A stretch of 64,000 nucleotides of DNA. Source: Acidobacteriota bacterium (GTDB lineage: Bacteria > Acidobacteriota > Thermoanaerobaculia > Gp7-AA8). How positions within the stretch are numbered: position 1 is the stretch's first letter; every line of letters begins with the position of its first letter. Location of the stretch: contig JAJPHC010000035.1 of the NCBI GenBank assembly GCA_021325515.1, positions 1 to 64,000 on the forward strand. Direction: 5' to 3'. The notes beneath the pieces were generated by a model, which saw nothing but the letters and a program-made list of their open reading frames with translations, made no database searches and was not told where the DNA came from. The translations under genes were made by a program, and so were the position numbers. Below are positions 41,411-54,341 of the stretch, in pieces.

Positions 41411-44400
41411 ATGACGGACGACGCGCTCTGGATTCGAAGTTTACGAGACCGGCTGAAGTTGAGCCAGGTGGCAATGGCGGAGGCGTTGGGAGTGTCCTTT
41501 CCCACTGTCAATCGGTGGGAAAACGGGAAATCACGCCCTTCGCCTGTCTTGCGCGAAAAGCTGCGCGAGCTGGCCGCAACTGCCCACGTTGACCGCATCG
41601 CCGAACCAGAGCCGCCCCCTTTCGTGGGTCCGGCGCTCCTTGACTTCACGGCGGACCCGGAGCGCGTCAGAGCGCTTGTCGAGGGAGAGCGGCTCTCGTT
41701 CGGGCACCTCGCGAATCCGGTCTTCGCTACGGAAGTCGCGCGCATCGACGCGCTGCCGCACCAACGGATCGCTGTCTACGACGTCATGCTGCAGCAGCCT
41801 CGGCTTCGATTCCTGCTGGCTGATGACGCTGGCGCCGGGAAGACGATCATGGCCGGCCTCTACATCAGAGAGATGCTGTCGCGCCGGCTGCTGACTCGAA
41901 TCCTGATCGTCCCGCCGGCGGGCCTCGTGGGCAACTGGCAGCAGGAGCTCGCGACCCTTTTTGGCCTCGAATTCCACATCGTGTCCGGGGCGGATGCGCG
42001 CGGCGAGAATCCGTTCGTCGGGCCAAAGAGTACTCGGCTGATCATCAGCGTTGACACGCTCGCGGGCGATCGGATGTTCGCCTGTCTCCGGCGTGAAGAC
42101 ATCCAGCCTTACGACCTCGTCATCTTCGACGAAGCGCACAAGCTCTCTTATGATCGCGGCGCCGACTTTCGCGATCGGAAGACAGAGCGATACAAGCTCG
42201 CCGAATCACTGGCCGGGGTGTCGAACGCTCAACGAAAACTCGGCTGGTCTGCCCACCACCTGCTACTCCTTACCGCCACCCCGCACATGGGGAAAGACTT
42301 CCCTTACTACGCGCTCTGGCGGCTTCTCGAACCGGAAATGGCCGGCACTCCGCAGGCACTGCAGGAGCTGCCGCCCGAAGTGAAAAGGCGTCATTTCATT
42401 CGCCGCACGAAGGAAGAGATGGTCAAGCTCAGCGGCGAACCGCTCTATCCGCGGCGGATGGCCGACACGCTGACCTATGAGCTGACCCGCGGCGAGATCA
42501 GCGAGCAGGCTCTCTACGACCGGATGACGGACTACCTCGTCAACGTCTACAACCGCGCGAAGCTTCTAAACCGCTCCGCGGCCCGACTGGCGATGAGCGT
42601 GTTCCAGCGTCGCCTCGCCAGCTCCACGTGGGCCACTCTGCGTTCACTCGAGCGGCGCGTCGAGAAACTCGACGGCATCATCGAAGACATTCAAAGCGGA
42701 CGGATCACGATCGAAGACATTCTTGCGCGGCAGCGCGACTTCGATGACGCGGATGATGTGCTCGACGCAAAGACGGCCGACGAGGAAATCTCGACGGATG
42801 GCCGCGAAGAGAATGAGGTGTCCGATGAGAAGCTGCTGGGGACGATCATCGCAACGTCCATCGCGGACCTTCTCGCCGAGCGGGAGATCGTCGTCAAGCT
42901 TCGCGATCTCGCTCGCGCTGTGCACGCCGACGGCCGCGAAGCGAAGTTTGAGAGGCTGCGCGAGATCATCACCGACCCGCGCTACATCAACGAGAAGCTG
43001 ATCGTCTTCACCGAGCATCGCGACACGCTCGATTTTCTCGTGCGACGCCTCCACGGCCTCGGCTACACAGGGCAGACGGCCACGATCCACGGAGGCATGA
43101 ACTACCTCGAGCGGCAGCAGCAGGTCGAACAGTTCCGCCTGCCTGCTGCGAGCGGTGGAGCGCGTTTCATGGTCTGCACCGATGCGGCAGCGGAGGGGAT
43201 CAACCTTCAGTTCTGCTGGAACATGATCAACTATGACGTGCCGTGGAATCCGGCGCGGCTGGAGCAGCGGATGGGGCGTATCCACCGCTACGGCCAGGCC
43301 CATGATCCCGTAGTGATTCTCAACCTCGTCGCGCCCGCCACTCGCGAAGGACGCGTGCTGCACGTACTCCTCGAGAAACTCGAGAAAATTCGCAAGCAAC
43401 TCCGCGCGGACAAGGTGTACGACAGCATCGGGCGCATCTTTGCGGGAGTGTCGATCAAGCAATACATGGAGCGCGCCCTTCACGGAGACGTCGCTGGCGT
43501 AGCCCACGAGATCGACGGACTCCTGACGAAGGAACAGGTTCGCGCCCTGTCGGAACAGGAGAAACGGATCTACGGCGAGGGCGGCGATGTGAAGAAGGAG
43601 TTGCCACGGCTTCGCGAGAGCATCGAACAGGAAACCTACTTCCGCCTGCTCCCAGGGTATGTACGGCGCTACCTCGAAACGGCGGCTCCGCTCGCCGGCA
43701 TCCGTCTCGACGGCGACAGTGGCGAATCCTTCACGTTTGCTCCGGCGGAGCCGGCTGCCGCCGATGCAGTTTTAGCCGCTATCGAAACCTATCCGCCGTC
43801 GCAGCGCGCGCGACTCACGGTCATTCGTCCTTCCGACCCGCGCTGGGGAATCTGGGTGCATCCCGGCGAGCCGGTGTTCGACGCTTTCCGCGAGATCGTC
43901 CGCGCGCGCCTCGGCCGCGACGCCCGTACCGGCGCGGTGTTCGCCGATCCTACGGCCGCGGCTCCGTACCTCTTTCATCTGCTGCGCGTGACCATTACGC
44001 GCCGGGCCGACCCGAGTCTCGACGAGCTTCGCAACGATGAGACGATCGAGTGCAGGCTGATCGGCCTGCGTCAGACCGAGAGCTCCGAAATGACGCTCTG
44101 CCCTGTGGAACATCTTCTTCTGCTTCATGGCGGCGCGGGACTTCCGGCCGAGGCGCAGAAACTCGCAGCGATGGCTGAGGAACATCGGGCGCGCGCCGCT
44201 GCGTACGTAACCGAACGGGTCGCGCGGGAGATGGCTGCCGAGCGGCGCTCACGGCTGCTGGCGACGATGGCGGAACGCGAGAACTTTCTGCGGCGTGGCC
44301 TCGACTTCCGGGAAGCCGAGCTCGCGGCAGCACGGGCCAAGCTCGCGCCGAAGGCGCGCGATGGGAACAAGGCGGCGGCTCAACATCTCGCGGAGATCCG

Positions 44401-44980
44401 CGAAGAGCAGAGGCTCCTCGACCGCCGGCGGGAGACCGCGATCGCGGTGCTCCGCCGGGAACCTGAGTTGATCGTGCCGGGCGACGTGGAGTTCATTGCC
44501 CACGCGCTCGTTGTCCCGACATCAGACGCCGAGGCCCGCAAGCGGCACGAACTGAATGTAGAGCAGACGGCGATGGATCTGGTCCGCGCCTACGAAGAAG
44601 CAGCAGGAGCCTCGGTCCGGCTCGTTCATCTTCCCCGTCTCGCTCGCGAGGCGGGGCTGCCCGACAATCCGGGATTCGACATTCTCTCGCTCCGCCCGAA
44701 TGGCGAACGCCGCTGCATCGAGGTGAAAGGCTGCAGCGCCAGCGCGGACATCGAGGTCACCGACAACGAGTGGGCCCGAGCCTGCAATCTCCGCGCGGAA
44801 TACTGGCTCTACGCGGTCTATCACTGTGCGACGCCGGCTCCGCAGATGGTGCGAGTTCAGGATCCATTCGAGAAGCTTCTGGTCCGTCCGTTTACAAAGA
44901 CGCAGCTCATCGAGAGCGTCCGTCAGGTCGGCGGAGTGCGAGTGGCGCACAGGCAGGTGATGGAAGCGGGGGAGATCTAG
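41411..44980 (+). CDS. HTH-SNF2 helicase-DUF3883 fusion protein
   Basis: The 1189-residue protein begins with an XRE helix-turn-helix (about 8-55, LSQVAMAEALGVSFPTVNRW). It continues as an SNF2/SF2 helicase: motif I DDAGAGKTIMA (~140), DEAH box IFDEAHKLS (~238), motif III LLTATPH (~288), C-terminal motor IVFTEHRDTLDFLV (~535) and motif VI RMGRIHRYGQ (~621). A C-terminal DUF3883/PD-(D/E)xK-like domain has GFDILSL...IEVKGC (~1090-1107). It is similar in plan to DrmD-type helicases of DISARM-like systems. The fused N-terminal HTH is unusual and suggests autoregulation at the palindromic operator upstream. The next start is three bases after its stop. Confidence 0.88.
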   Translation: MTDDALWIRSLRDRLKLSQVAMAEALGVSFPTVNRWENGKSRPSPVLREKLRELAATAHVDRIAEPEPPPFVGPALLDFTADPERVRALVEGERLSFGHLANPVFATEVARIDALPHQRIAVYDVMLQQPRLRFLLADDAGAGKTIMAGLYIREMLSRRLLTRILIVPPAGLVGNWQQELATLFGLEFHIVSGADARGENPFVGPKSTRLIISVDTLAGDRMFACLRREDIQPYDLVIFDEAHKLSYDRGADFRDRKTERYKLAESLAGVSNAQRKLGWSAHHLLLLTATPHMGKDFPYYALWRLLEPEMAGTPQALQELPPEVKRRHFIRRTKEEMVKLSGEPLYPRRMADTLTYELTRGEISEQALYDRMTDYLVNVYNRAKLLNRSAARLAMSVFQRRLASSTWATLRSLERRVEKLDGIIEDIQSGRITIEDILARQRDFDDADDVLDAKTADEEISTDGREENEVSDEKLLGTIIATSIADLLAEREIVVKLRDLARAVHADGREAKFERLREIITDPRYINEKLIVFTEHRDTLDFLVRRLHGLGYTGQTATIHGGMNYLERQQQVEQFRLPAASGGARFMVCTDAAAEGINLQFCWNMINYDVPWNPARLEQRMGRIHRYGQAHDPVVILNLVAPATREGRVLHVLLEKLEKIRKQLRADKVYDSIGRIFAGVSIKQYMERALHGDVAGVAHEIDGLLTKEQVRALSEQEKRIYGEGGDVKKELPRLRESIEQETYFRLLPGYVRRYLETAAPLAGIRLDGDSGESFTFAPAEPAAADAVLAAIETYPPSQRARLTVIRPSDPRWGIWVHPGEPVFDAFREIVRARLGRDARTGAVFADPTAAAPYLFHLLRVTITRRADPSLDELRNDETIECRLIGLRQTESSEMTLCPVEHLLLLHGGAGLPAEAQKLAAMAEEHRARAAAYVTERVAREMAAERRSRLLATMAERENFLRRGLDFREAELAAARAKLAPKARDGNKAAAQHLAEIREEQRLLDRRRETAIAVLRREPELIVPGDVEFIAHALVVPTSDAEARKRHELNVEQTAMDLVRAYEEAAGASVRLVHLPRLAREAGLPDNPGFDILSLRPNGERRCIEVKGCSASADIEVTDNEWARACNLRAEYWLYAVYHCATPAPQMVRVQDPFEKLLVRPFTKTQLIESVRQVGGVRVAHRQVMEAGEI

Positions 44981-44982
44981 GC

Positions 44983-46578
44983 ATGAGAGTAGTCTTTTCG
45001 GTCCAGTACGACATTGTCGGCGAGCAGTCAGGCGCGGAGTTGCTGAACGCGATTGTTGGCGAGCTGAAAACGTGGATATCAACCAAGTACGTACGTACGT
45101 GGTCGAGATCATTCGATGTTCCTGACGGCGATTTCTCTGAAGCTCCGTTGACGGGTCACACGATCACCGCCCGATCTGTCTCACTCGCGGACCACGACTT
45201 GTACGAGGTCGAGTGGAAGCATCCACACGATTCTGACCTGTCAGCAAGCTGGGTCACCGGCTGTACGATCGCTCGATCCGGTGATCGCGTCTCGTTTGGG
45301 ATTACCGTTAGGCTCACGTCGGAGGCGATCGTCCTGCGGCCTCTCGGTTTCACCTTCGGAACTCCAGGGATCGTGCGCGAGTTGCTCACCCGCTACCAGG
45401 TGTTCGTCGGATCCTCGTTGGTGCGGAGCGATGTTTTCACGATCGGTGCGGCAGGCGTTCCGGAATTCGTCCACGAGGTCTTACTGGATACAGAACGCGC
45501 TTTGCCAGTGGTCGTGGTTTCAAGCGATCCTTGGTCTGACCAACCGCTTATCGATCCTCGTGTGCTGCAGCGACAGATCGCTGGCTTGGCGAACGTGGTT
45601 TATCTCGAAAACAAGTGGGCCGGCTTTAAGCTCAGCGAAATGCTCGGCAAGCAGCGGTCCGCGTACAACGGTGCTGTCAGAGTCTATTGGCCCGGCTTCT
45701 CGATCGAGTCGAGCCCTTTCGATCATCATCTTTATCTGCCCGATCAGATTCAAAGCGAAACGCCGCGGGTGTTTGCACGGAACCTCTTTCACTTCCTTAC
45801 AGGTATTGCCATCTTGCGATTCCGAGACGGCCAAGTGGTGTCGGAAACACGCAGAGAAATCGAGCGTCTGGAGGAACAGCGCATCGCCGAATTGCGCAAC
45901 CAGGTGGAGCGCGGCACAGCTACTGAGCAGGAGCTCACGACCGAAATCGAGACAGCTTGGCATCGTGCGGAGCGCGCCGAGAAAGAGCGTGACGGCCTCC
46001 TTGATGACCTAGCAGCTCTCAAAAAACAACTCGAGACAACGCAGAAGGACCTTGAGGCACAGCGTGCAAGTTGGCGGCAGGTCCAGGAATTCAAGCAGAC
46101 GGTCCCGGTGGCGGCCACCGAAACAGAACCTGAAGGTGAGTTTCGGTCAGTTGAAGCAGCATTCCTTGCCGCGAAACAGCGGTTCAGCGGTCCACTACTC
46201 TTCCTCGAATCTGCGCTTAGATCGGCGAAGGACTCGCCGTTCAAGCAGCCTGATCGCGTCTTCGAGTTGTTTGAGGCTATGTATGAAATCGCTACCCAGT
46301 GGAAGAAGCATGACGGGGCACTTGGTCAGCGCTGGGAAACTGCCTTCGAGACATTCGGGTTCGATTACCGGCCCACGATCTCCCAGACCTCAGAAGGAAA
46401 GTGGGCTAAGGATTACACATTCGTCTACGACGGCGTCCCCCGTCTGTTCGAGTCACACGTAACGATAGGTAAGAAGGGACCTGACTCCTGCCTATCTGTG
46501 CACTTCTACCGCGACGATGACAATCTCGTGCTCGTCATCGGCCATTGCGGCAGACACCTGACAAATACAAGCACATGA
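44983..46578 (+). CDS. Unknown coiled-coil protein of the defence operon, 531 aa
   Basis: ATG 44983 is preceded by GGGGGAGA in the end of the helicase gene. I do not recognise the family. The N-terminal ~270 residues look alpha/beta, with VVYLENKWAGFKLSEMLGKQ and YNGAVRVYWPGF. Residues ~285-375 are a long coiled coil (RREIERLEEQRIAELRNQVE and following heptads). The last ~150 are helical plus a small beta part ending FYRDDDNLVLVIGHCGRH. No nuclease or ATPase motif is visible. Codon use is more AT-rich than in the helicase gene. Its position between helicase and methyltransferase suggests a subunit or sensor of the system. Confidence 0.75.
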   Translation: MRVVFSVQYDIVGEQSGAELLNAIVGELKTWISTKYVRTWSRSFDVPDGDFSEAPLTGHTITARSVSLADHDLYEVEWKHPHDSDLSASWVTGCTIARSGDRVSFGITVRLTSEAIVLRPLGFTFGTPGIVRELLTRYQVFVGSSLVRSDVFTIGAAGVPEFVHEVLLDTERALPVVVVSSDPWSDQPLIDPRVLQRQIAGLANVVYLENKWAGFKLSEMLGKQRSAYNGAVRVYWPGFSIESSPFDHHLYLPDQIQSETPRVFARNLFHFLTGIAILRFRDGQVVSETRREIERLEEQRIAELRNQVERGTATEQELTTEIETAWHRAERAEKERDGLLDDLAALKKQLETTQKDLEAQRASWRQVQEFKQTVPVAATETEPEGEFRSVEAAFLAAKQRFSGPLLFLESALRSAKDSPFKQPDRVFELFEAMYEIATQWKKHDGALGQRWETAFETFGFDYRPTISQTSEGKWAKDYTFVYDGVPRLFESHVTIGKKGPDSCLSVHFYRDDDNLVLVIGHCGRHLTNTST

Positions 46579-46591
46579 GGCATACGCGTCC

Positions 46592-49500
46592 ATGACCGAC
46601 ACCCCTCGTCTCATCGAATTCGCCTTTCCGCTCGAACAGGCTTCGATCGACTCTGTACACGAGAAGAACGTGCGGCATGGGCACATCTCCACGCTGCACA
46701 TCTGGCCGGCGCGGCGGCCCCTGGCGGCGTGCCGCGCGGCGCTGATCGCCACGCTGCTTCCCGATCCCGGGAACGAGCCGAAGCCGGACGGGATGTCTGA
46801 GGCGGAGTGGGAGAAGGAAGTGCAGGCACGGCGGCGGAAGCTGTCCGAGCGGATCGGTGGGACGCTCGTGAAAACCATCGAACGGAAGAAGATGCCGAAC
46901 GGCAGCATCGTCGACCGGGAGAAGAAGGAGACGAAGGGCGGCATTCTGCACTGGATCGGCACCGAGCCGGCCTCGGGCGGACGGAAAAAACTCGAGCAGT
47001 ACCGGCGCGACGTCGAAGATCGCGAGAAGGAGCTGGAGTGGTTCCGCCAGGAAATCCGCAAGGCGTACGGCGGCCGCGCGCCGCGGGTGCTCGACCCCTT
47101 CGCCGGCGGTGGAGCGATTCCGCTAGAGGCGATGCGCCTTGGATGCGAGGCCACGGCGGCCGACATCAACCCTGTCGCCTGGTTCATCCTCAAATGCACG
47201 CTCGAGTATCCGCAGAAGCTCGCCGGAAAGACGCATCCGCTGCCGGACTTCATCCTCGAGGACGACGAGTTCATGACGTCTTTCTACAAGGCGCATCCCC
47301 ACCTCGCCGGACGAACGAAACGGACGAAGGCGCAGGCCGACAAGCCCGGCCTCTTCGATGCGCCGGAGACCGGACGCGCGCCGCGTGCCGATCTCGCCTG
47401 GCACGTGCGCGCCTGGGGGTGCTGGGTCCTGGCCCGCGCGCGGCGGGAGCTCGCGCCGTATTACCCGACGTACGCTGACTTCGAGCCGCTGCAGACCGCC
47501 GGGCCGCGTCCGTACGAGCGGCAGCCGATGCGTCTCGTGCCGTTGCGTGAAGACGGGACCGCGGACATCGGCGCGCTCAATCGCGACTTCGGCGCCGAAT
47601 ACCTGGCCGACCCGCGCAATCCGCGCTGGGTGGCGAAGCCCGCGGTGGCCTATCTGTGGGCCCGCACCGCGACGTGCAGGAACTGTCGTGCAACGATGCC
47701 TCTGCTCAAGACGCGCTGGCTGGCGAAGAAGGAGAACAAGCGCGTGCTCCTGACAATGGAGCCGAACGCGGAGAAGACGGGCGTCATCTTCGGCATCGAG
47801 AAGAATGCGCCCGCGCGTGGTGGCAATGCCGCACAGAAGCGGGAGCACGATCGCCGGCTCGGTGCCGGAACGATGTCGCGTGCAGGCGCCAAATGTCCGT
47901 GCTGCGACGCCATTATGACGATGGACGATCTCCGCGCGGAGGGGAAGGCTGGGCGGCTCGGTGCGTTAGCCACCGCTGTAATCGTTGATGTGCAGGGAGG
48001 CAAAGACTATCGTCTTCCCACCGATGAGGAAACTGCCTCGTCGGCAATTCCGTCGGGCACGATCGACAGGATTTACTCACAGGTTCCGTACGGTGTTCCG
48101 GAAGAGCCCACACCAGCTGGCGGCGGCAGTGGCGCCGGCCGCGCATTCTCGGTTCAGAAGTACGGTCTGATGAGGTGGCGCGATCTCTTTACGCCACGGC
48201 AGCTGGCTGCAGCCGGCGTTATTGCTCGCGATATCCGATTGATATCTAACGAAGCATCTCTACCCGCGGATTGGACCGGGGCCATACACGCGATGCTGCT
48301 ACTAGCATTCGATCGGTTTATTAACTACACAAGCACTATTTGCATCTGGGAACCAAATGCTGGTGAGATCAAGCAGACGTTCCTCCGGTTCGCACTGCCA
48401 ATCACCTGGGATTTCGCCGAAGCCAACCCTCTAGCGCCGATAGACCGTTACTTCGCGGGCGCCGTTTCCAATGTCGCCCGGGTTCTGGATGGGCTCAAAC
48501 CAAACTCTTTTTCCGCGCCATCATGTCGCGTCGAAAACCGGTCCGCTATCGTTCCTTTAGCTCGACAGTTCGACGCTATCATCACTGATCCTCCGTATTA
48601 CGACGCGATTCCGTATTCGGATCTCATGGACTTTTTTTATGTTTGGTTAAAGAGACTGGCTGTGGGAACCCCTCTCGAAGCCGCTTTCGCTTCCGAGCTG
48701 TCACCTAAGTGGAGCTCCGAGAGCCATGATGGCGAGTTGATTGACGATGCTAGTCGGCACGGAGGAGATGAGGAACAATCCAAGAGGACATACGAAGACG
48801 GCATGTCGCGGGCGTTTGATGCGTGCAAGGCATCGTTGGCAGAGAATGGGACTTTGGTTGTCGTCTTTGCGCACAAACAACCCGATGCTTGGGAAACACT
48901 TGCTGCAGCGCTGATCCGAGCGGGTTTTGTTGTGGATGCATCTTGGCCGATCGTCACGGAGATGCGCGGCGGCGTTCGGAACTTTGGTCGCGCCTCTCTT
49001 GCGTCCTCCGTCTGGCTGGTCTGCCGCAAACGCCCGCTCGACGCGCGCACGGGCTGGGATGAATCAGTTCTTGCCGAGATGCGCTCAACGATCTCTCGTC
49101 GCCTGCGCGAATTCTGGGATGCCGGAGTGCAGGGACCGAACTTCGTCTGGGCGGCCACTGGACCCGGACTCGAGGCCTACAGCAAGCATCCGGTCGTGAA
49201 GAAGGCCAACGATCCGGGTGCGACACTGTCGGTCGGCGAGTTCCTCATCCATGTGCGTCGCATGGTGGTCGACTTCGTGATCGGCCGCGTCCTCATGGGC
49301 GACTCCGCCGACTCCTCCGATCTCGCCGCCGCCGACCGGCTGGACAGCATCACCTCGTACTACCTGCTGCACCGTCACGACTTCGGTCTCGACGAAGCGC
49401 CGTCCGGTGCATGCATCCTCTATGCGACCGCCTGCGGCCTCTCCGATCGAGACCTCGAGTCGACCTGGGATCTCGTCACTCACAGCGGCAACACCTCGAC

Positions 49501-49918
49501 TGCTTCGATCGAGATGGACATTGACGCTGAAGACGCAGAAGAGGACGAGGACGAAGGAACGTCCGGTGATTCAGGAAGCAAGATCCGGCTCAAGTCGTGG
49601 GCGCAGCGCAAGCAGAAGAGCCTCGGCTTTGAAGCACCGGGCGGCCACGCGGTTCCGCTCATCGACCGCATCCACCGTCTCATGCATCTCTGGCGCGCCG
49701 GCGATGAATCGCGCGTCAATCAGTACCTCGACGAACACGGCCTCCGCCGTCATGAGCTGTTCCGCCGCGTGCTGCAGTCGCTCATCGAGCTGTCGGCCGC
49801 GGGCAGTGAGGAACGGTCCCTCCTCGAATCGATCAGCAACCACATTCTGGCGCGCGGCGTGGCGCCCGACACCCGTCAGTTGACGCTGGTCACTGCAGGC
49901 GGAGAGCCCGGAGCATGA
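46592..49918 (+). CDS. DUF1156-type DNA adenine methyltransferase
   Basis: The 1108-residue protein has the DUF1156-like N-terminus (FAFPLEQASIDSVHEKNVRHGHISTLHIWPARRP). SAM motif I DPFAGGGAIPLEA lies near residue 170, ADINPVAWFI follows, two CxxC pairs (TCRNC ~360, CPCC ~433) form an inserted zinc-ribbon, and the catalytic motif IV is DPPYYDAIPYSDLMDFFY near 668. It probably methylates adenine in DNA to mark self. Bases about 48000-48980 use clearly more A/T-ending codons than the rest of the gene, as if that segment had been exchanged. It overlaps the Fic gene by four bases. Confidence 0.85.
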   Translation: MTDTPRLIEFAFPLEQASIDSVHEKNVRHGHISTLHIWPARRPLAACRAALIATLLPDPGNEPKPDGMSEAEWEKEVQARRRKLSERIGGTLVKTIERKKMPNGSIVDREKKETKGGILHWIGTEPASGGRKKLEQYRRDVEDREKELEWFRQEIRKAYGGRAPRVLDPFAGGGAIPLEAMRLGCEATAADINPVAWFILKCTLEYPQKLAGKTHPLPDFILEDDEFMTSFYKAHPHLAGRTKRTKAQADKPGLFDAPETGRAPRADLAWHVRAWGCWVLARARRELAPYYPTYADFEPLQTAGPRPYERQPMRLVPLREDGTADIGALNRDFGAEYLADPRNPRWVAKPAVAYLWARTATCRNCRATMPLLKTRWLAKKENKRVLLTMEPNAEKTGVIFGIEKNAPARGGNAAQKREHDRRLGAGTMSRAGAKCPCCDAIMTMDDLRAEGKAGRLGALATAVIVDVQGGKDYRLPTDEETASSAIPSGTIDRIYSQVPYGVPEEPTPAGGGSGAGRAFSVQKYGLMRWRDLFTPRQLAAAGVIARDIRLISNEASLPADWTGAIHAMLLLAFDRFINYTSTICIWEPNAGEIKQTFLRFALPITWDFAEANPLAPIDRYFAGAVSNVARVLDGLKPNSFSAPSCRVENRSAIVPLARQFDAIITDPPYYDAIPYSDLMDFFYVWLKRLAVGTPLEAAFASELSPKWSSESHDGELIDDASRHGGDEEQSKRTYEDGMSRAFDACKASLAENGTLVVVFAHKQPDAWETLAAALIRAGFVVDASWPIVTEMRGGVRNFGRASLASSVWLVCRKRPLDARTGWDESVLAEMRSTISRRLREFWDAGVQGPNFVWAATGPGLEAYSKHPVVKKANDPGATLSVGEFLIHVRRMVVDFVIGRVLMGDSADSSDLAAADRLDSITSYYLLHRHDFGLDEAPSGACILYATACGLSDRDLESTWDLVTHSGNTSTASIEMDIDAEDAEEDEDEGTSGDSGSKIRLKSWAQRKQKSLGFEAPGGHAVPLIDRIHRLMHLWRAGDESRVNQYLDEHGLRRHELFRRVLQSLIELSAAGSEERSLLESISNHILARGVAPDTRQLTLVTAGGEPGA

Positions 49919-50976
49919 CCACCCACTCCTTCGACGAACGCTTCGAAAGGCGTCTCCTGTACACCCACAGTCTGGTCCGGACGATCCGAGTCCTCGGCGA
50001 GTACCGCGGCAAAGAGGAGCTCTATGCGCAGCAGATCCCTCAGGCGCTGGAGACGCTCCGCCAGACGGCGGTCATCCAGAGCACTGAGTCGTCGAATCGC
50101 ATCGAGGGAGTAACCGCGCCGCAGCAGCGCATCCGCGACCTGGTGGCGGAGAAGACGACGCCGCGCGACCGGTCGGAGCAGGAGATCGCCGGCTACCGCG
50201 ACGTGCTGGCGACGATTCACGCCAACCATGCCTCGATGGATCTCTCCGCGAATCTCGTGCTGCAGCTTCATCGCGATCTGTTCCGCTACACCGCCGAGGG
50301 GGGCGGCGTATGGAAGAACGTCTCGAACACGATCACCGAAAAGCATGCGAACGGATCCGAGCGCATCCGGTTCGAGCCGGTTGCGCCGCATCTCGTCGAG
50401 CCGGCGATGCGCGATCTGCACGTTCACTTTTCGGCGCTTCGCGAGCGCGAGACGATCGACCCGCTGCTGCTGATCCCCGCGTATGTGCTCGACTTCCTCT
50501 GCATTCACCCGTTTCGTGATGGAAACGGGAGAATGGCCAGACTGCTGACGCTCCTGCTTCTGTATCAGGCCGGCTATGCCGTCGGCAGGTACATCAGTCT
50601 GGAGAAACTCGTGGAAGAGTCGAAGGAAACGTATTACGACACTCTGAAGCAGTGTTCGGCGGGGTGGCACGAAGGGGATCACACGCTTCTGCCGTGGACC
50701 GAATACCTCCTCGGAGTGGTCGTGGCGGCCTACCGCGCATTCGAAGAGCGGGTCGGCTCGCTGACGACGGCGCGAGGCGCGAAGACGCAGACGGTCCTCG
50801 ATACGATCGGTGCCTTTGCGGGGGACTTCTCCACGTCTGAGATTCAGGAACGTTGCCCGAACGTCAGCCTCGATCTGATTCGTCGTATCCTTCAGGAGCA
50901 GAAGAAGTTGGGGGCGGTCGAACCGCTCGGACGAGGACCTCAGGCGCGATGGCGCAGAGTGAGGCCAGCGGAATAG
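49915..50976 (+). CDS. Fic-family protein with C-terminal winged helix
   Basis: The 353-residue protein has an N-terminal inhibitory-helix motif SSNRIEGV (the S/TxxxE-G form, residue ~62), a Fic core HPFRDGNGRMARLL near residue 198 that is complete for AMP transfer, and a C-terminal winged helix (about 285-345, STSEIQERCPNVSLDLIRRIL). Fic enzymes transfer AMP or a similar group onto a target protein. The motif class implies auto-inhibition. It overlaps the methyltransferase gene by four bases (ATGA), so it belongs to the same operon. Its target may be another system component, which is inference. Confidence 0.93.
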   Translation: MTTHSFDERFERRLLYTHSLVRTIRVLGEYRGKEELYAQQIPQALETLRQTAVIQSTESSNRIEGVTAPQQRIRDLVAEKTTPRDRSEQEIAGYRDVLATIHANHASMDLSANLVLQLHRDLFRYTAEGGGVWKNVSNTITEKHANGSERIRFEPVAPHLVEPAMRDLHVHFSALRERETIDPLLLIPAYVLDFLCIHPFRDGNGRMARLLTLLLLYQAGYAVGRYISLEKLVEESKETYYDTLKQCSAGWHEGDHTLLPWTEYLLGVVVAAYRAFEERVGSLTTARGAKTQTVLDTIGAFAGDFSTSEIQERCPNVSLDLIRRILQEQKKLGAVEPLGRGPQARWRRVRPAE

Positions 50977-51044: not shown

Positions 51045-54000
51045 ATGCCGAAGAATCCCTGGAAGGCATGGCATGAGGTCGTTTCGCTGCGGGACGATCT
51101 GCGCAGCGGGGAGCTGCCGCTGCAGATGTTCGCGGCCGATCTGTACGAAGTCGTGATGCAGCGGGGGAAGCAGCCGGTCTACGAGGATCCAGCGAGTTTT
51201 TTTGCACTCACCTATCCGACGTACAACCTCCGCCAGCTCGTCCGCGACGTGATCCATCGAATCGCTGGGAAGAACGACAAGGCCGTCCGCCAACTCGAGC
51301 TGACCTACGGCGGCGGCAAGACGCACACACTCATCACGCTCTATCACCTCGCCATGAACCCTGCGGCGCTGCCGAATCTGCCGGCGGTCGAGGAGTTCAG
51401 GGAAGCGGTCGATGGGAAGCTCACGCAGGCTCGCGTTGCAGCGCTGAGCTTCGACAAGCTCGACGTCGAGAAGGGAATGGAGATCGTCGCGCCGGATGGC
51501 ACGCCCCGCTGGCTGCGTGAGCCGTGGAGCGTGCTGGCCTGGCAGCTCGCAGGTGACGAGGGACTACGCCTGCTGCACGCGGACAGCAAGTCCGAGGAAC
51601 GCGAGAGCGCGCCCGCCGAAAATCTCCTCACGGCGTTGCTGGAGATCCCCACGCAGAAGGGTCTCGGGGTTCTCGTTCTCATCGACGAGGTGTTGATGTA
51701 CGCACGCGAGAAAGCGGGTGCTGATCCTGCCGCGCGCTCGCGACTGGTCAACTTCTTCCAATACCTGACGCAGGCGGCGACGAAGGTTCCGCGTTGTTGC
51801 ATCGTGGCCTCGCTTCTTGCCAGCGATCCGGCGAAAGAGGACTCGTTCGGAAAGCAGCTGCAGAGCGAGTTGTATGCGATCTTCCAAAGGCAGCGCGAGG
51901 AAGCCGTCGAACCTGTGGTCAAAGCCGATGTCGCCGAGTTGCTGCGCCGCCGGTTTTTCACTCCTGACTCGATTCGGGACATCAACATCTTTCGACCTCA
52001 CGTCCAGGCGGCGCTGAAAGGCATCGCGGAGCTCGACGAACAAACGCGGCGTGAAGGGCCCGATGCCGAAAAGCGCTACCTCGCGAGCTTTCCCTTCCAC
52101 CCCGATCTGACCGAGGTTTTCTATACGAAGTGGACGAGCCTGAAGGGATTCCAGCGAGCCCGCGGTGTTCTGCGTACGTTCGCTCTTGCTCTCCGGGCGG
52201 CAGAACGCTGGGATCCATCGCCGCTCGTGACGACCGCAGCACTTCTGCATGAGCCGGGCTCCGACGATCTCTCCGAAGCGATGCGCGAGCTGATCACCGT
52301 GGCGGATCAGGAGGAGCACGAAGGGAAGAAGCAGTCGTGGAGTGCCATCGTCCAGGGAGAGCTATCGCGCGCGAGGGAGATTCAGCGCGATTCCGCGCGC
52401 GTCAACTTCCGCGAGATCGAACAGTCCGTCATCGCGACGTTTCTGCATTCGCAGCCGGCAGGACGGACGGCGCAAACGCGCGACCTGAAAGTGCTCGCTG
52501 GCACGACCCGTCCTGATCCAATCGAGTTGGACAAGGGCCTGAAGCGGTGGTTCCAGGTCAGCTACTGGCTCGAGGATCAATACGCAGCCCAGGACCCGCA
52601 GCAGCTTCCATCGGAATGGAAGCTCGGCCACCGGCCGAACCTGAACCAGATGCATGCGGTATCGGTGGCGCGGTTCTCTGATGACGTAGTCCGTGCGCGC
52701 CTCCTCGAGGAAATCGGGAAAGCGAAGCAGCTCGTGACGGGAGCATCGGCCTCCGGTGTGCGTGTGCACGTGCTGCCCCAGCGGCCGCGCGACATCGAGG
52801 ACGATGGACAGTTTCACTACGCCGTGGTCGGTCCCGCAGCGGCATCCGACTCGGGGAAGCCGAGTGCCGAGGCGCGGAGATTCCTGGACGAGACTTCAAG
52901 TCCGGACAAGCCGCGCGTCCATCGGAACGCGGTGATTCTTCTCGCTCCATCGAATGACGGACTTGCTCTGGCGATGGCGCGCGTCCGGGACCATCTTGGC
53001 TGGCTCGACGTACAGAACGAGCTGAAAAAGGACAGCGGCCTCGATCCGGCCCGGATGGCGACACTCGCCCTCAATGTCGATACGTCGCGCAATCGAATTG
53101 TGGACGCAATTCGCCAGGCATATTCGACGGTCGTCACGGTGTCGCGCGAAAACGAAGTCCACGCCTTCAAGATCAACGTGACGGACGAAGCGCATTTCAT
53201 CACGCTGAAGAATGACTCTCGCTCGCGGATCCAGGAAACCGCGGTAACAGCGGACGCGCTGTTGCCCGGCGGTCCGTATGACCTGTGGAAGTCGGGTGAA
53301 ACCAGCCGCCGCGTGAAAGATCTCACCAGCGCGTTCGCCTCGCACCCGCATCTCCCTAAAATGCTCAAAGCACAGGCCATCCACCAGACGCTCATGGATG
53401 GGTGTGAGCAGGGGATGTTCGTCCTGAAGCTGGCGCGACCCGACAAGAGCGTCCGGACATGGTGGCGCTCGCGCGTCGATGACGTCGCCATCAACGACCC
53501 GGCGATCGAGCTCGTCCTCAGTGAGGCCGCGGAGCTCGCGGAAGTGCCGCACCAACTCCTCGTCCCGGGCGTCTTGCCGGAACTGTGGAGCGGGAGCTCA
53601 ATCAACGTTCAGGCGGTACGTGATTACTTCGCGGGCAAGACAGTCGTGCGCAATGCGTACGGCGAGACTGCCGCCGTGCCCAAGGCGAATCCGGATGTCG
53701 TGGACAGCGCCATCAAAAGTGCGGTGGAAGCCGGGAATCTATGGCTGGTGAGTGGGCCAACCAGTCTTCTTGCCGAACCGGTGCCACACGGCGTGATTGC
53801 ACCCAGTGCGACCTTACAGGCGCCCCCACCTCCGATTGGAGGACACGAGATCCTTTCTCAAACCCTTCCTGGTGCCTGGGAGTCGGGAACGGCCACGGCC
53901 TTGTCGATCGCGACATCTCTTTCGCACAGGTTCGGCCAGACACTCCCATGGAAAAACGTTCGCGACGTCATCGACAATGCCATCCGTGCCCGCTTCCTCG

Positions 54001-54341
54001 ATCTGGATCCTACTTCCGGCTCGTGGCCATGCGATTTTTCATCCGCGCGATCCATTCGGTTGAAGGAGTCGTCGGCACAACCGCTCCCTTCTGAACCGTC
54101 TCACCCGAAACCACGAAAAGCAAACACCCTGGTTGCGGAGGCGGAACTCGCACCACGCGAGCTCCAGGACCTTGGGGATGTCGTGTCGAAGTTGCTCGAT
54201 ATCAAGGCGAAGCACAATTTCGAGATGAGGATTCGAGTTCAGATCGAAGTCGATGGCGCTTCCGCAGGTTCGTCTCCTGAGCTGAAGAACCTGCTGAATC
54301 AGATTCTCAAGGATGTAAACACCGATCTCGAGATGTCGTGA
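51045..54341 (+). CDS. DUF499-type P-loop ATPase
   Basis: The 1098-residue protein has a Walker A near residue 88 (ELTYGGGKTHTLITLYHL), a Walker B near 215 (GVLVLIDEVLMYAREKA) and an arginine-finger-like region in the following helices, typical of large DUF499 proteins. GGAGAGAGGAA precedes ATG 51045. The C-terminal ~130 residues include a Pro-rich linker and a small domain (FEMRIRVQIEVDGASAG). DUF499 ATPases co-occur with DUF1156 methyltransferases and SNF2 helicases in predicted defence islands. The likely role is DNA sensing or effector activation by ATP use. It is the last gene of the block. Confidence 0.82.
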   Translation: MPKNPWKAWHEVVSLRDDLRSGELPLQMFAADLYEVVMQRGKQPVYEDPASFFALTYPTYNLRQLVRDVIHRIAGKNDKAVRQLELTYGGGKTHTLITLYHLAMNPAALPNLPAVEEFREAVDGKLTQARVAALSFDKLDVEKGMEIVAPDGTPRWLREPWSVLAWQLAGDEGLRLLHADSKSEERESAPAENLLTALLEIPTQKGLGVLVLIDEVLMYAREKAGADPAARSRLVNFFQYLTQAATKVPRCCIVASLLASDPAKEDSFGKQLQSELYAIFQRQREEAVEPVVKADVAELLRRRFFTPDSIRDINIFRPHVQAALKGIAELDEQTRREGPDAEKRYLASFPFHPDLTEVFYTKWTSLKGFQRARGVLRTFALALRAAERWDPSPLVTTAALLHEPGSDDLSEAMRELITVADQEEHEGKKQSWSAIVQGELSRAREIQRDSARVNFREIEQSVIATFLHSQPAGRTAQTRDLKVLAGTTRPDPIELDKGLKRWFQVSYWLEDQYAAQDPQQLPSEWKLGHRPNLNQMHAVSVARFSDDVVRARLLEEIGKAKQLVTGASASGVRVHVLPQRPRDIEDDGQFHYAVVGPAAASDSGKPSAEARRFLDETSSPDKPRVHRNAVILLAPSNDGLALAMARVRDHLGWLDVQNELKKDSGLDPARMATLALNVDTSRNRIVDAIRQAYSTVVTVSRENEVHAFKINVTDEAHFITLKNDSRSRIQETAVTADALLPGGPYDLWKSGETSRRVKDLTSAFASHPHLPKMLKAQAIHQTLMDGCEQGMFVLKLARPDKSVRTWWRSRVDDVAINDPAIELVLSEAAELAEVPHQLLVPGVLPELWSGSSINVQAVRDYFAGKTVVRNAYGETAAVPKANPDVVDSAIKSAVEAGNLWLVSGPTSLLAEPVPHGVIAPSATLQAPPPPIGGHEILSQTLPGAWESGTATALSIATSLSHRFGQTLPWKNVRDVIDNAIRARFLDLDPTSGSWPCDFSSARSIRLKESSAQPLPSEPSHPKPRKANTLVAEAELAPRELQDLGDVVSKLLDIKAKHNFEMRIRVQIEVDGASAGSSPELKNLLNQILKDVNTDLEMS

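What the first reader, a model, noticed from the sequence alone, without database searches (positions are those of the whole stretch)
44983..46578. Unknown coiled-coil protein between helicase and methyltransferase
The 531-residue product has an alpha/beta N-terminal domain, a ~90-residue coiled coil and a small C-terminal domain, and I recognise no family. Its codon use differs from the helicase gene. In defence operons such a gene is often the specificity or effector subunit.
Basis: inference. Interest (0 to 1): 0.6.

Follow-up and report, generated by a model that had tools for sequence, protein, structure and literature searches.

The report
Stand-alone defence gene inside Hma operon
The unknown gene between the helicase and methyltransferase is a member of a catalogued but unexplained phage-defence candidate family (HEC-07) that usually lives outside such operons, and its tail end is predicted to fold like the RNA-cutting RelE/YafQ toxins, so it is probably a self-contained emergency switch carried as cargo rather than a part of the surrounding system.

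Summary
The ORF is real (44983-46578, 531 aa, operonic). The operon is an Hma system: HmaA helicase, HmaB DUF1156 methyltransferase, HmaC DUF499 ATPase (a 'Type-1 BR' system in BREX terms), plus a Fic gene. The 'unknown' protein has no Pfam match but belongs to PADLOC family HEC-07 (E=3e-53), an 'Hma-embedded candidate' for which I found no described mechanism. New here: (1) it is not an Hma subunit. Of 69 GTDB loci with a HEC-07 ORF only 4 adjoin Hma genes; the closest relatives stand alone, others are prophage cargo or adjoin R-M genes. The five Hma-associated copies need five separate changes on the tree, and the same slot in related Hma operons holds other defence genes (Pycsar, AbiEii, NYN+SIR2, PDC-S01). 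(2) Confident AF2 models give an N-terminal START-like plus thioredoxin-like module, a ~90-residue coiled coil and a C-terminal domain that matches almost only RelE/YafQ/YoeB/HigB/ParE toxins. That domain is homologous to the NsnC/PtuZ BECR domain (hhalign 97%). Its two conserved histidines sit in motifs like YafQ H63 and H87. Best explanation: an autonomous, antitoxin-less sensor-effector whose RelE-like domain stops translation on infection. Autonomy is well supported; the fold is probable; RNase activity and trigger are inferred.

The parts
41411..44980 (+). HmaA-type SNF2/DEAD helicase, 1189 aa, N-terminal Xre-type HTH, C-terminal NOV_C PD-(D/E)XK-like domain (motif GFD...IEVKG)
   Evidence: PADLOC HmaA E=3.9e-144; Pfam Helicase_C, NOV_C, HTH_3
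44983..46578 (+). HEC-07 protein, 531 aa: the finding
   Evidence: PADLOC PDLC04161 E=2.9e-53, residues 62-530; Pfam none; 42-sequence alignment
44983..45399 (+). N-terminal module, residues 1-139, helix-grip/START-like fold
   Evidence: AF2 model pLDDT 92.5; 5yqj Z 9.0, rmsd 3.6, 130 aligned
45424..45807 (+). second module, residues 148-275, thioredoxin-like alpha/beta fold without CxxC; holds R172, GAVRVYWPG (230-238), H248
   Evidence: 3apo Z 11.1, rmsd 2.4, 107 aligned; conservation; no cysteine in this stretch of the window protein
45832..46101 (+). coiled-coil-like helices, residues 284-373
   Evidence: DSSP on AF2 model; coiled-coil-type matches only
46150..46575 (+). C-terminal RelE/BECR-like domain, residues 390-531
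   Evidence: AF2 alone pLDDT 95.7, pTM 0.90; 48 of the 50 listed VIA rows are RelE/ParE-superfamily toxins, best YafQ 4q2u Z 7.6, rmsd 2.9, 86 of 90 aligned; hhalign to NsnC C-terminus 97%, E=8e-11
46456..46458 (+). codon of invariant His492 (motif E-x-H, compare YafQ D61-x-H63)
   Evidence: invariant in 42 full-length and 52 C-domain sequences; YafQ motif read from E. coli K-12
46555..46557 (+). codon of nearly invariant His525 (motif G-x-H, compare YafQ H87)
   Evidence: 91% His, 9% Lys by weight; pairs with YafQ H87 in the best profile alignment (score not significant)
46592..49918 (+). HmaB-type DUF1156 methyltransferase, 1108 aa
   Evidence: PADLOC HmaB E=3.8e-107; Pfam DUF1156
49915..50976 (+). 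Fic-domain protein, 353 aa, cargo in the HmaB-HmaC slot
   Evidence: PADLOC SoFic E=1.6e-35; Pfam Fic
51045..54341 (+). HmaC-type DUF499 ATPase, 1098 aa
   Evidence: PADLOC HmaC E=2.8e-71; Pfam DUF499

Best explanation
The gene is HEC-07, an autonomous single-gene anti-phage module carried as cargo between hmaA and hmaB of an Hma operon. Shown: family, autonomy of distribution, recurrent and independent association with Hma, and a three-part architecture. Probable (predicted structure): the C-terminal domain has the RelE/YafQ-type BECR fold, shared with NsnC/PtuZ. Inferred: the N-terminal START-like plus thioredoxin-like module keeps the C-domain silent and senses an infection cue; the coiled coil makes the protein dimerise; on sensing, the C-domain (H492, H525) cleaves mRNA, most likely on the ribosome as YafQ and Cami1 do, stopping translation and aborting phage production as a second layer behind Hma. 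No antitoxin is needed because the silencer is in cis.
For: Family: PADLOC HEC-07 E=2.9e-53, operon neighbours HmaA/HmaB/HmaC. Autonomy: 4 of 69 GTDB loci adjoin Hma genes; the closest relatives (36-40% identity, L049-L052) have none nearby; other copies adjoin phage portal, capsid or terminase genes, type I and III R-M genes and an OLD-type ATPase. The five Hma-associated copies need five changes on the tree, forced by starred branches; the window's copy groups with stand-alone L049/L050 (99/84), while its HmaA is 53% identical to that of L062, whose HEC-07 is only 32% identical. In related Hma operons the same slot holds Pycsar PycC+PycTM, HEC-09 NYN + SIR2-like, AbiEii or PDC-S01. C-domain; the NsnABC gene content equals ptuXYZ, whose PtuZ C-terminus was modelled as BECR fold (PMC11980606). 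Histidines: with YafQ H63 and H87 essential (PMC6529426). Precedent: Cami1, a CARF-RelE protein that cuts mRNA at the A site (PMC11229360).
Against: Sequence profiles of the C-domain against YafQ, YoeB and Gp49 are not significant, and Z 7.6 alone lies in the range that unrelated folds can reach; the case rests on nearly all ranked rows being one superfamily and on the PtuZ link. YafQ's H50, D67 and F91 have no clear counterpart. No toxicity or phage data. Some HEC-07-like proteins sit in non-defence places (N-module-only proteins beside pyridoxal decarboxylase; C-domain proteins beside SMC), so not every relative need be a defence gene.
Confidence: 0.55

Rival explanations
1. Autonomous cargo as above, but the BECR-like domain is not a nuclease: it acts as a ParE-like inhibitor or only binds RNA, ribosome or a protein partner.
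For: The fold list includes ParE gyrase inhibitors; sequence similarity to known RNase families is absent; YafQ H50/D67/F91 have no clear equivalents.
Against: Two histidines kept across many phyla in motifs like YafQ H63/H87 fit catalysis; ParE toxins are described as lacking the catalytic residues of BECR RNases (PMC11980606).
Confidence: 0.2
2. It is a true Hma subunit (specificity or effector component of helicase-methyltransferase-ATPase).
For: 2 bp and 13 bp spacing in one operon; five Hma loci have it directly after hmaA.
Against: Most homologues have no Hma; most HmaB-bearing genomes of the phylum lack HEC-07; the slot holds unrelated cargo in close Hma relatives; HEC-07 and HmaA relationships disagree.
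Confidence: 0.1
3. Roles reversed: the conserved N-terminal module (R172, GAVRVYWPG, H248) is the enzyme or effector and the C-domain is the sensor.
For: The N-module holds the strongest motif of the family and exists alone in Dormibacterota; one relative (L038) keeps it with a different C-terminus.
Against: The C-domain is re-used behind other N-termini, as in NsnC, L029, L035, L042 and L044, typical of an effector; the N-module fold matches no known toxin.
Confidence: 0.12

Closest known systems
HEC-07 (PADLOC-DB Hma-embedded candidate)
   Same: Profile match over nearly the full length, E=2.9e-53, and same genomic setting in an Hma operon.
   Different: Catalogued as a candidate only; I found no described domains or mechanism in the held library. 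This report adds the domain assignment, the mostly stand-alone distribution and the tree evidence.
NsnC / PtuZ (third gene of DUF262 + DUF3696-ATPase + NsnC operons, ptuXYZ of Gerdes 2025)
   Same: Homologous C-terminal domain with both histidines (hhalign 97%), described as BECR fold related to YoeB/HigB (PMC11980606).
   Different: PtuZ has an inactive PIN-like N-domain and a three-gene operon; HEC-07 has a START-like plus thioredoxin-like N-module and no DUF262/ATPase partners.
YafQ / RelE / YoeB ribosome-dependent mRNA interferases
   Same: Predicted fold (YafQ Z 7.6, 86 of 90 residues) and two histidine motifs.
   Different: No significant sequence similarity, no antitoxin gene, a large N-terminal regulator in cis, and an insertion of about 35 residues after the second helix of the toxin fold.
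Cami1 (CARF-RelE effector of type III CRISPR)
   Same: Same logic: N-terminal sensor fused to a C-terminal RelE nuclease (PMC11229360).
   Different: No CARF domain recognised, no CRISPR locus in the operon; the trigger is unknown.
Hma / Type-1 BREX-related (BR) systems
   Same: Host operon: helicase-nuclease, DUF1156 methyltransferase, DUF499 ATPase (PMC8565338, PMC12839542).
   Different: HEC-07 is not one of the three core components; this HmaA has an N-terminal Xre-type HTH where the BR review describes a TUDOR domain.

Membership tests
HEC-07 | full-length match to the PADLOC HEC-07 profiles | tested here: met
   four HEC-07 models hit, best 2.9e-53 over residues 62-530
HEC-07 | found embedded in an Hma operon | tested here: met
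   HmaA, HmaB, HmaC profiles hit on both sides
HEC-07 | anti-phage activity of the single gene | not testable with these tools
   needs a plaque assay
[quoted passage not shown]
   on a predicted model: order of elements and 48 of the 50 listed VIA rows; Z below 8, so probable rather than proven
RelE/ParE (BECR) superfamily | sequence-detectable kinship with a BECR family | tested here: inconclusive
   not significant for YafQ, YoeB, Gp49; strong for NsnC/PtuZ C-terminus, itself assigned by AF2 modelling (PMC11980606)
RelE/ParE (BECR) superfamily | catalytic residues of a ribosome-dependent RNase | tested here: inconclusive
   H492 and H525 parallel YafQ H63 and H87; no clear H50, D67, F91
RelE/ParE (BECR) superfamily | mRNA cleavage at the ribosomal A site | not testable with these tools
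   needs biochemistry
type II toxin-antitoxin module | cognate antitoxin gene adjacent | tested here: not met
   neighbours are HmaA (2 bp upstream) and HmaB (13 bp downstream); so it is not filed as a TA module
Nsn / ptuXYZ | operon with DUF262 protein and DUF3696-type ATPase | tested here: not met
   absent around the window gene; present at L130 (both genes), ATPase also at L127-L129
Hma core subunit | conserved presence in Hma systems | tested here: not met
   57 of 396 genomes have an HmaB-like gene, 14 have HEC-07, adjacent in two; close Hma operons lack it
Cami1 | CARF sensor domain | tested here: inconclusive
   no Pfam hit; N-module ranks START-like and thioredoxin-like, but absence from the list does not exclude others

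The most novel reading that the evidence does not exclude
HEC-07 is a widespread, antitoxin-independent immune protein in which a new type of infection sensor (START-like plus thioredoxin-like module with the conserved R172 / GAVRVYWPG / H248 signature) directly gates a divergent YafQ-like RNase through a coiled coil, and it moves as an interchangeable cassette among Hma operons, R-M operons and prophages.
Probability: 0.4. Interest if true: 0.7.

Novelty: new member of a known kind. Interest (0 to 1): 0.5.

Why it matters
HEC-07 is one of many 'embedded' defence candidates without a published mechanism that I could find. A concrete domain assignment with two testable histidines turns it from a name into a hypothesis, links three unconnected annotations (HEC-07, NsnC, PtuZ) through one shared effector domain, and shows that the two gene junctions of Hma operons act as cargo slots, a practical way to find further defence genes.

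Tried and rejected
Sequence searches that gave nothing useful: Pfam, NCBIfam coiled-coil hits only, PHROGs coiled-coil only, PDB sequences, phage records, a first viral-contig scan with the single protein. Full-length fold search alone is not informative for the C-domain: Foldseek E not below 5e-3, rows dominated by START-like and thioredoxin-like parts. I tested whether the RelE kinship shows in sequence profiles: it does not (one search was a faulty first attempt with wrong strands). Considered and rejected: phage structural protein (no such match; it is merely next to structural genes in prophages), housekeeping family, thioredoxin activity (no cysteine in residues 148-275 of the window protein), SMC-type protein (only the coiled coil matches). 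No literature was found under the Nsn names; the identity of Nsn with ptuXYZ is my inference from matching gene content. The original HEC paper (Payne and colleagues) is not in the held library; I rely on citing papers (PMC12988326, PMC11411939).

Full report
What is there. The ORF at 44983-46578 (+) encodes 531 residues. It is the second of five co-directional, tightly spaced genes. PADLOC profiles name the others: HmaA helicase (E=3.9e-144), HmaB methyltransferase (3.8e-107), a SoFic-type Fic protein (1.6e-35) and HmaC ATPase (2.8e-71), so the operon is an Hma system, called Type-1 BREX-related in PMC12839542. The protein itself has no Pfam match but matches PADLOC HEC-07 at 2.9e-53 over residues 62-530, and NsnC over its C-terminal part at 5e-8. 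HEC stands for Hma-embedded candidate (PMC12988326); I found no described mechanism for HEC-07 in the held papers.

Host and composition. One HEC-07 locus from a genome of the same phylum (G299, L030) is the same contig as the GTDB record L085, titled Acidobacteriota bacterium, so the window is inferred to be from an acidobacteriote. HEC-07 has GC 56.2% and GC3 0.644; the other four operon genes have GC 61.6-63.8% and GC3 0.735-0.785. This fits a recent arrival.

Does it belong to the operon's machine? A scan of GTDB genomes gave 74 loci; 69 have a HEC-07 ORF recognised by phmmer and only four of these adjoin Hma genes (L062, L085, L091, L094; a fifth, L090, has a different SNF2 helicase two genes away). 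Some loci lie near contig ends, so the count is approximate. The nearest relatives at 36-40% identity (L049-L052) lack Hma nearby. Other settings: beside phage portal, capsid or terminase genes (L045, L058, L060, L078), beside a D12 adenine methylase (L073), after type III R-M genes (L092), after a GmrSD_N-methylase pair (L081), after HsdR (L099), after an OLD-type ATPase (L089), after a Z1-domain protein (L051). In 396 same-phylum genomes, 57 have an HmaB-like gene and 14 have HEC-07, adjacent in two.

Tree. On a 46-sequence tree the five Hma-associated copies need five changes, and starred branches force five. The window's copy forms a supported group with stand-alone L049 and L050 (99/84). 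Its HmaA is 52.8% identical to that of L062, while the two HEC-07 proteins share 31.6%. HEC-07 evolves faster than HmaA in other pairs too (L085-L094: 59.8% against 37.6%), so the identity gap alone is not proof; the grouping with stand-alone copies is the stronger point.

The slot. In Hma operons whose HmaB is 53-62% identical to the window's, HEC-07 is absent and the hmaA-hmaB junction holds other genes: PycC plus PycTM, a known Pycsar pair (L233), HEC-09 NYN plus a SIR2-like protein (L227), AbiEii (L228), a PDC-S01 ATPase (L225). The hmaB-hmaC junction is also used: an OLD-type ATPase of PDC-M07A in L233, similar ATPase ORFs in L231 and L234, Fic in the window. So HEC-07 occupies a cargo slot.

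Structure. AF2 on 42 sequences gives mean pLDDT 92.5. Residues 1-139 resemble START/helix-grip domains (5yqj Z 9.0), 148-275 resemble thioredoxin (3apo Z 11.1, rmsd 2.4, 107 residues) without CxxC, 284-373 are coiled-coil-like helices. The C-domain modelled alone on 52 sequences gives pLDDT 95.7, pTM 0.90. Of the 50 rows VIA-align lists, 48 are RelE/ParE-superfamily structures by their titles (YafQ, RelE, YoeB, HigB, ParE and entries titled toxin or TA complex), one is the insecticidal toxin Txp40 and one is unrelated; best is YafQ with 86 of its 90 residues, Z 7.6, rmsd 2.9. Foldseek's top rows are also mostly RelE-type toxins, with weak E-values (0.1 upwards). Z below 8 can arise by chance, but a list filled by one superfamily with full-domain coverage is hard to get by chance.

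Independent support. NsnC loci L127-L130 hold a RecF/DUF3696-type ATPase gene just upstream and, where tested (L130), a GmrSD_N/DUF262 gene before it, the content of ptuXYZ described by Gerdes (PMC11980606). That paper models the PtuZ C-terminus as a BECR fold similar to HigB/YoeB. The HEC-07 C-domain profile aligns to NsnC C-termini at 97% probability, E=8e-11, over the whole domain with both histidines aligned. Equating Nsn with ptuXYZ is my inference.

Active site. H492 is invariant and H525 is His in 91% by weight, Lys in the rest. E. coli YafQ reads ...YRDAHVEPDW...RTGTH...; H63 and H87 are among the residues whose change abolishes YafQ activity and H87 is the proposed general acid (PMC6529426). 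HEC-07 reads ...FESHVTIG...GHCGRHL.... This motif parallel is suggestive; profile alignment pairs H525 with H87 but its score is not significant (18 of 200 shuffles as high).

Mechanism proposed. An autoinhibited sensor-effector: the N-module senses infection, the coiled coil dimerises, the RelE-like domain cuts mRNA, probably on ribosomes, and translation stops. Cami1, a CARF-RelE protein, is the working precedent (PMC11229360). Trigger, dimerisation and cleavage are inferred, not shown.

Verdict. An ordinary member of a named candidate family in a known kind of operon, but with a new and testable account of what it is: about 0.85 likely to be autonomous cargo, about 0.7 that the C-domain is a BECR-type fold, about 0.55 for the full RNase effector model.

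Noticed in passing
window 49915-50976: A Fic-domain gene (SoFic-type, E=1.6e-35) sits between hmaB and hmaC, overlapping the hmaB stop by 4 bp; in other Hma operons this junction holds OLD-type ATPase genes.
   Followed up: partly
L225, L227, L228, L233 (hmaA-hmaB junction): The junction is a cargo slot for known or candidate abortive-infection genes: Pycsar, HEC-09 NYN + SIR2-like, AbiEii, PDC-S01.
   Followed up: partly
window 41411-44980; L062 6420-9989: The HmaA helicase of the window has an N-terminal Xre-type HTH (E=1.5e-10), with a similar N-terminus in L062, where the BR review describes a TUDOR domain; possibly autoregulatory.
   Followed up: no
L087, L093, L096, L098, L102, L103, L105, L113: In Dormibacterota and a related Chloroflexi MAG a protein of about 380 aa with only the HEC-07 N-module lies directly downstream of a gene family that is a pyridoxal-dependent decarboxylase in the member tested (L113), 6-15 bp apart; a conserved non-defence-looking setting.
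   Followed up: partly
L111, L112, L114: Solirubrobacterales-type genomes carry a protein with the HEC-07 C-domain next to or just downstream of an SMC gene.
   Followed up: partly
L029, L035, L042, L044: The HEC-07 C-domain occurs behind unrelated N-terminal regions (252-724 aa proteins), and L038 has the N-module with a different C-terminus: the two halves are shuffled modules.
   Followed up: partly
L041 (Klebsiella pneumoniae plasmid NZ_CP097699.1): A 529-aa HEC-07 relative is carried on IncFIB plasmids of about 110 kb in Klebsiella, near a phage-type 5'-3' exonuclease gene.
   Followed up: partly
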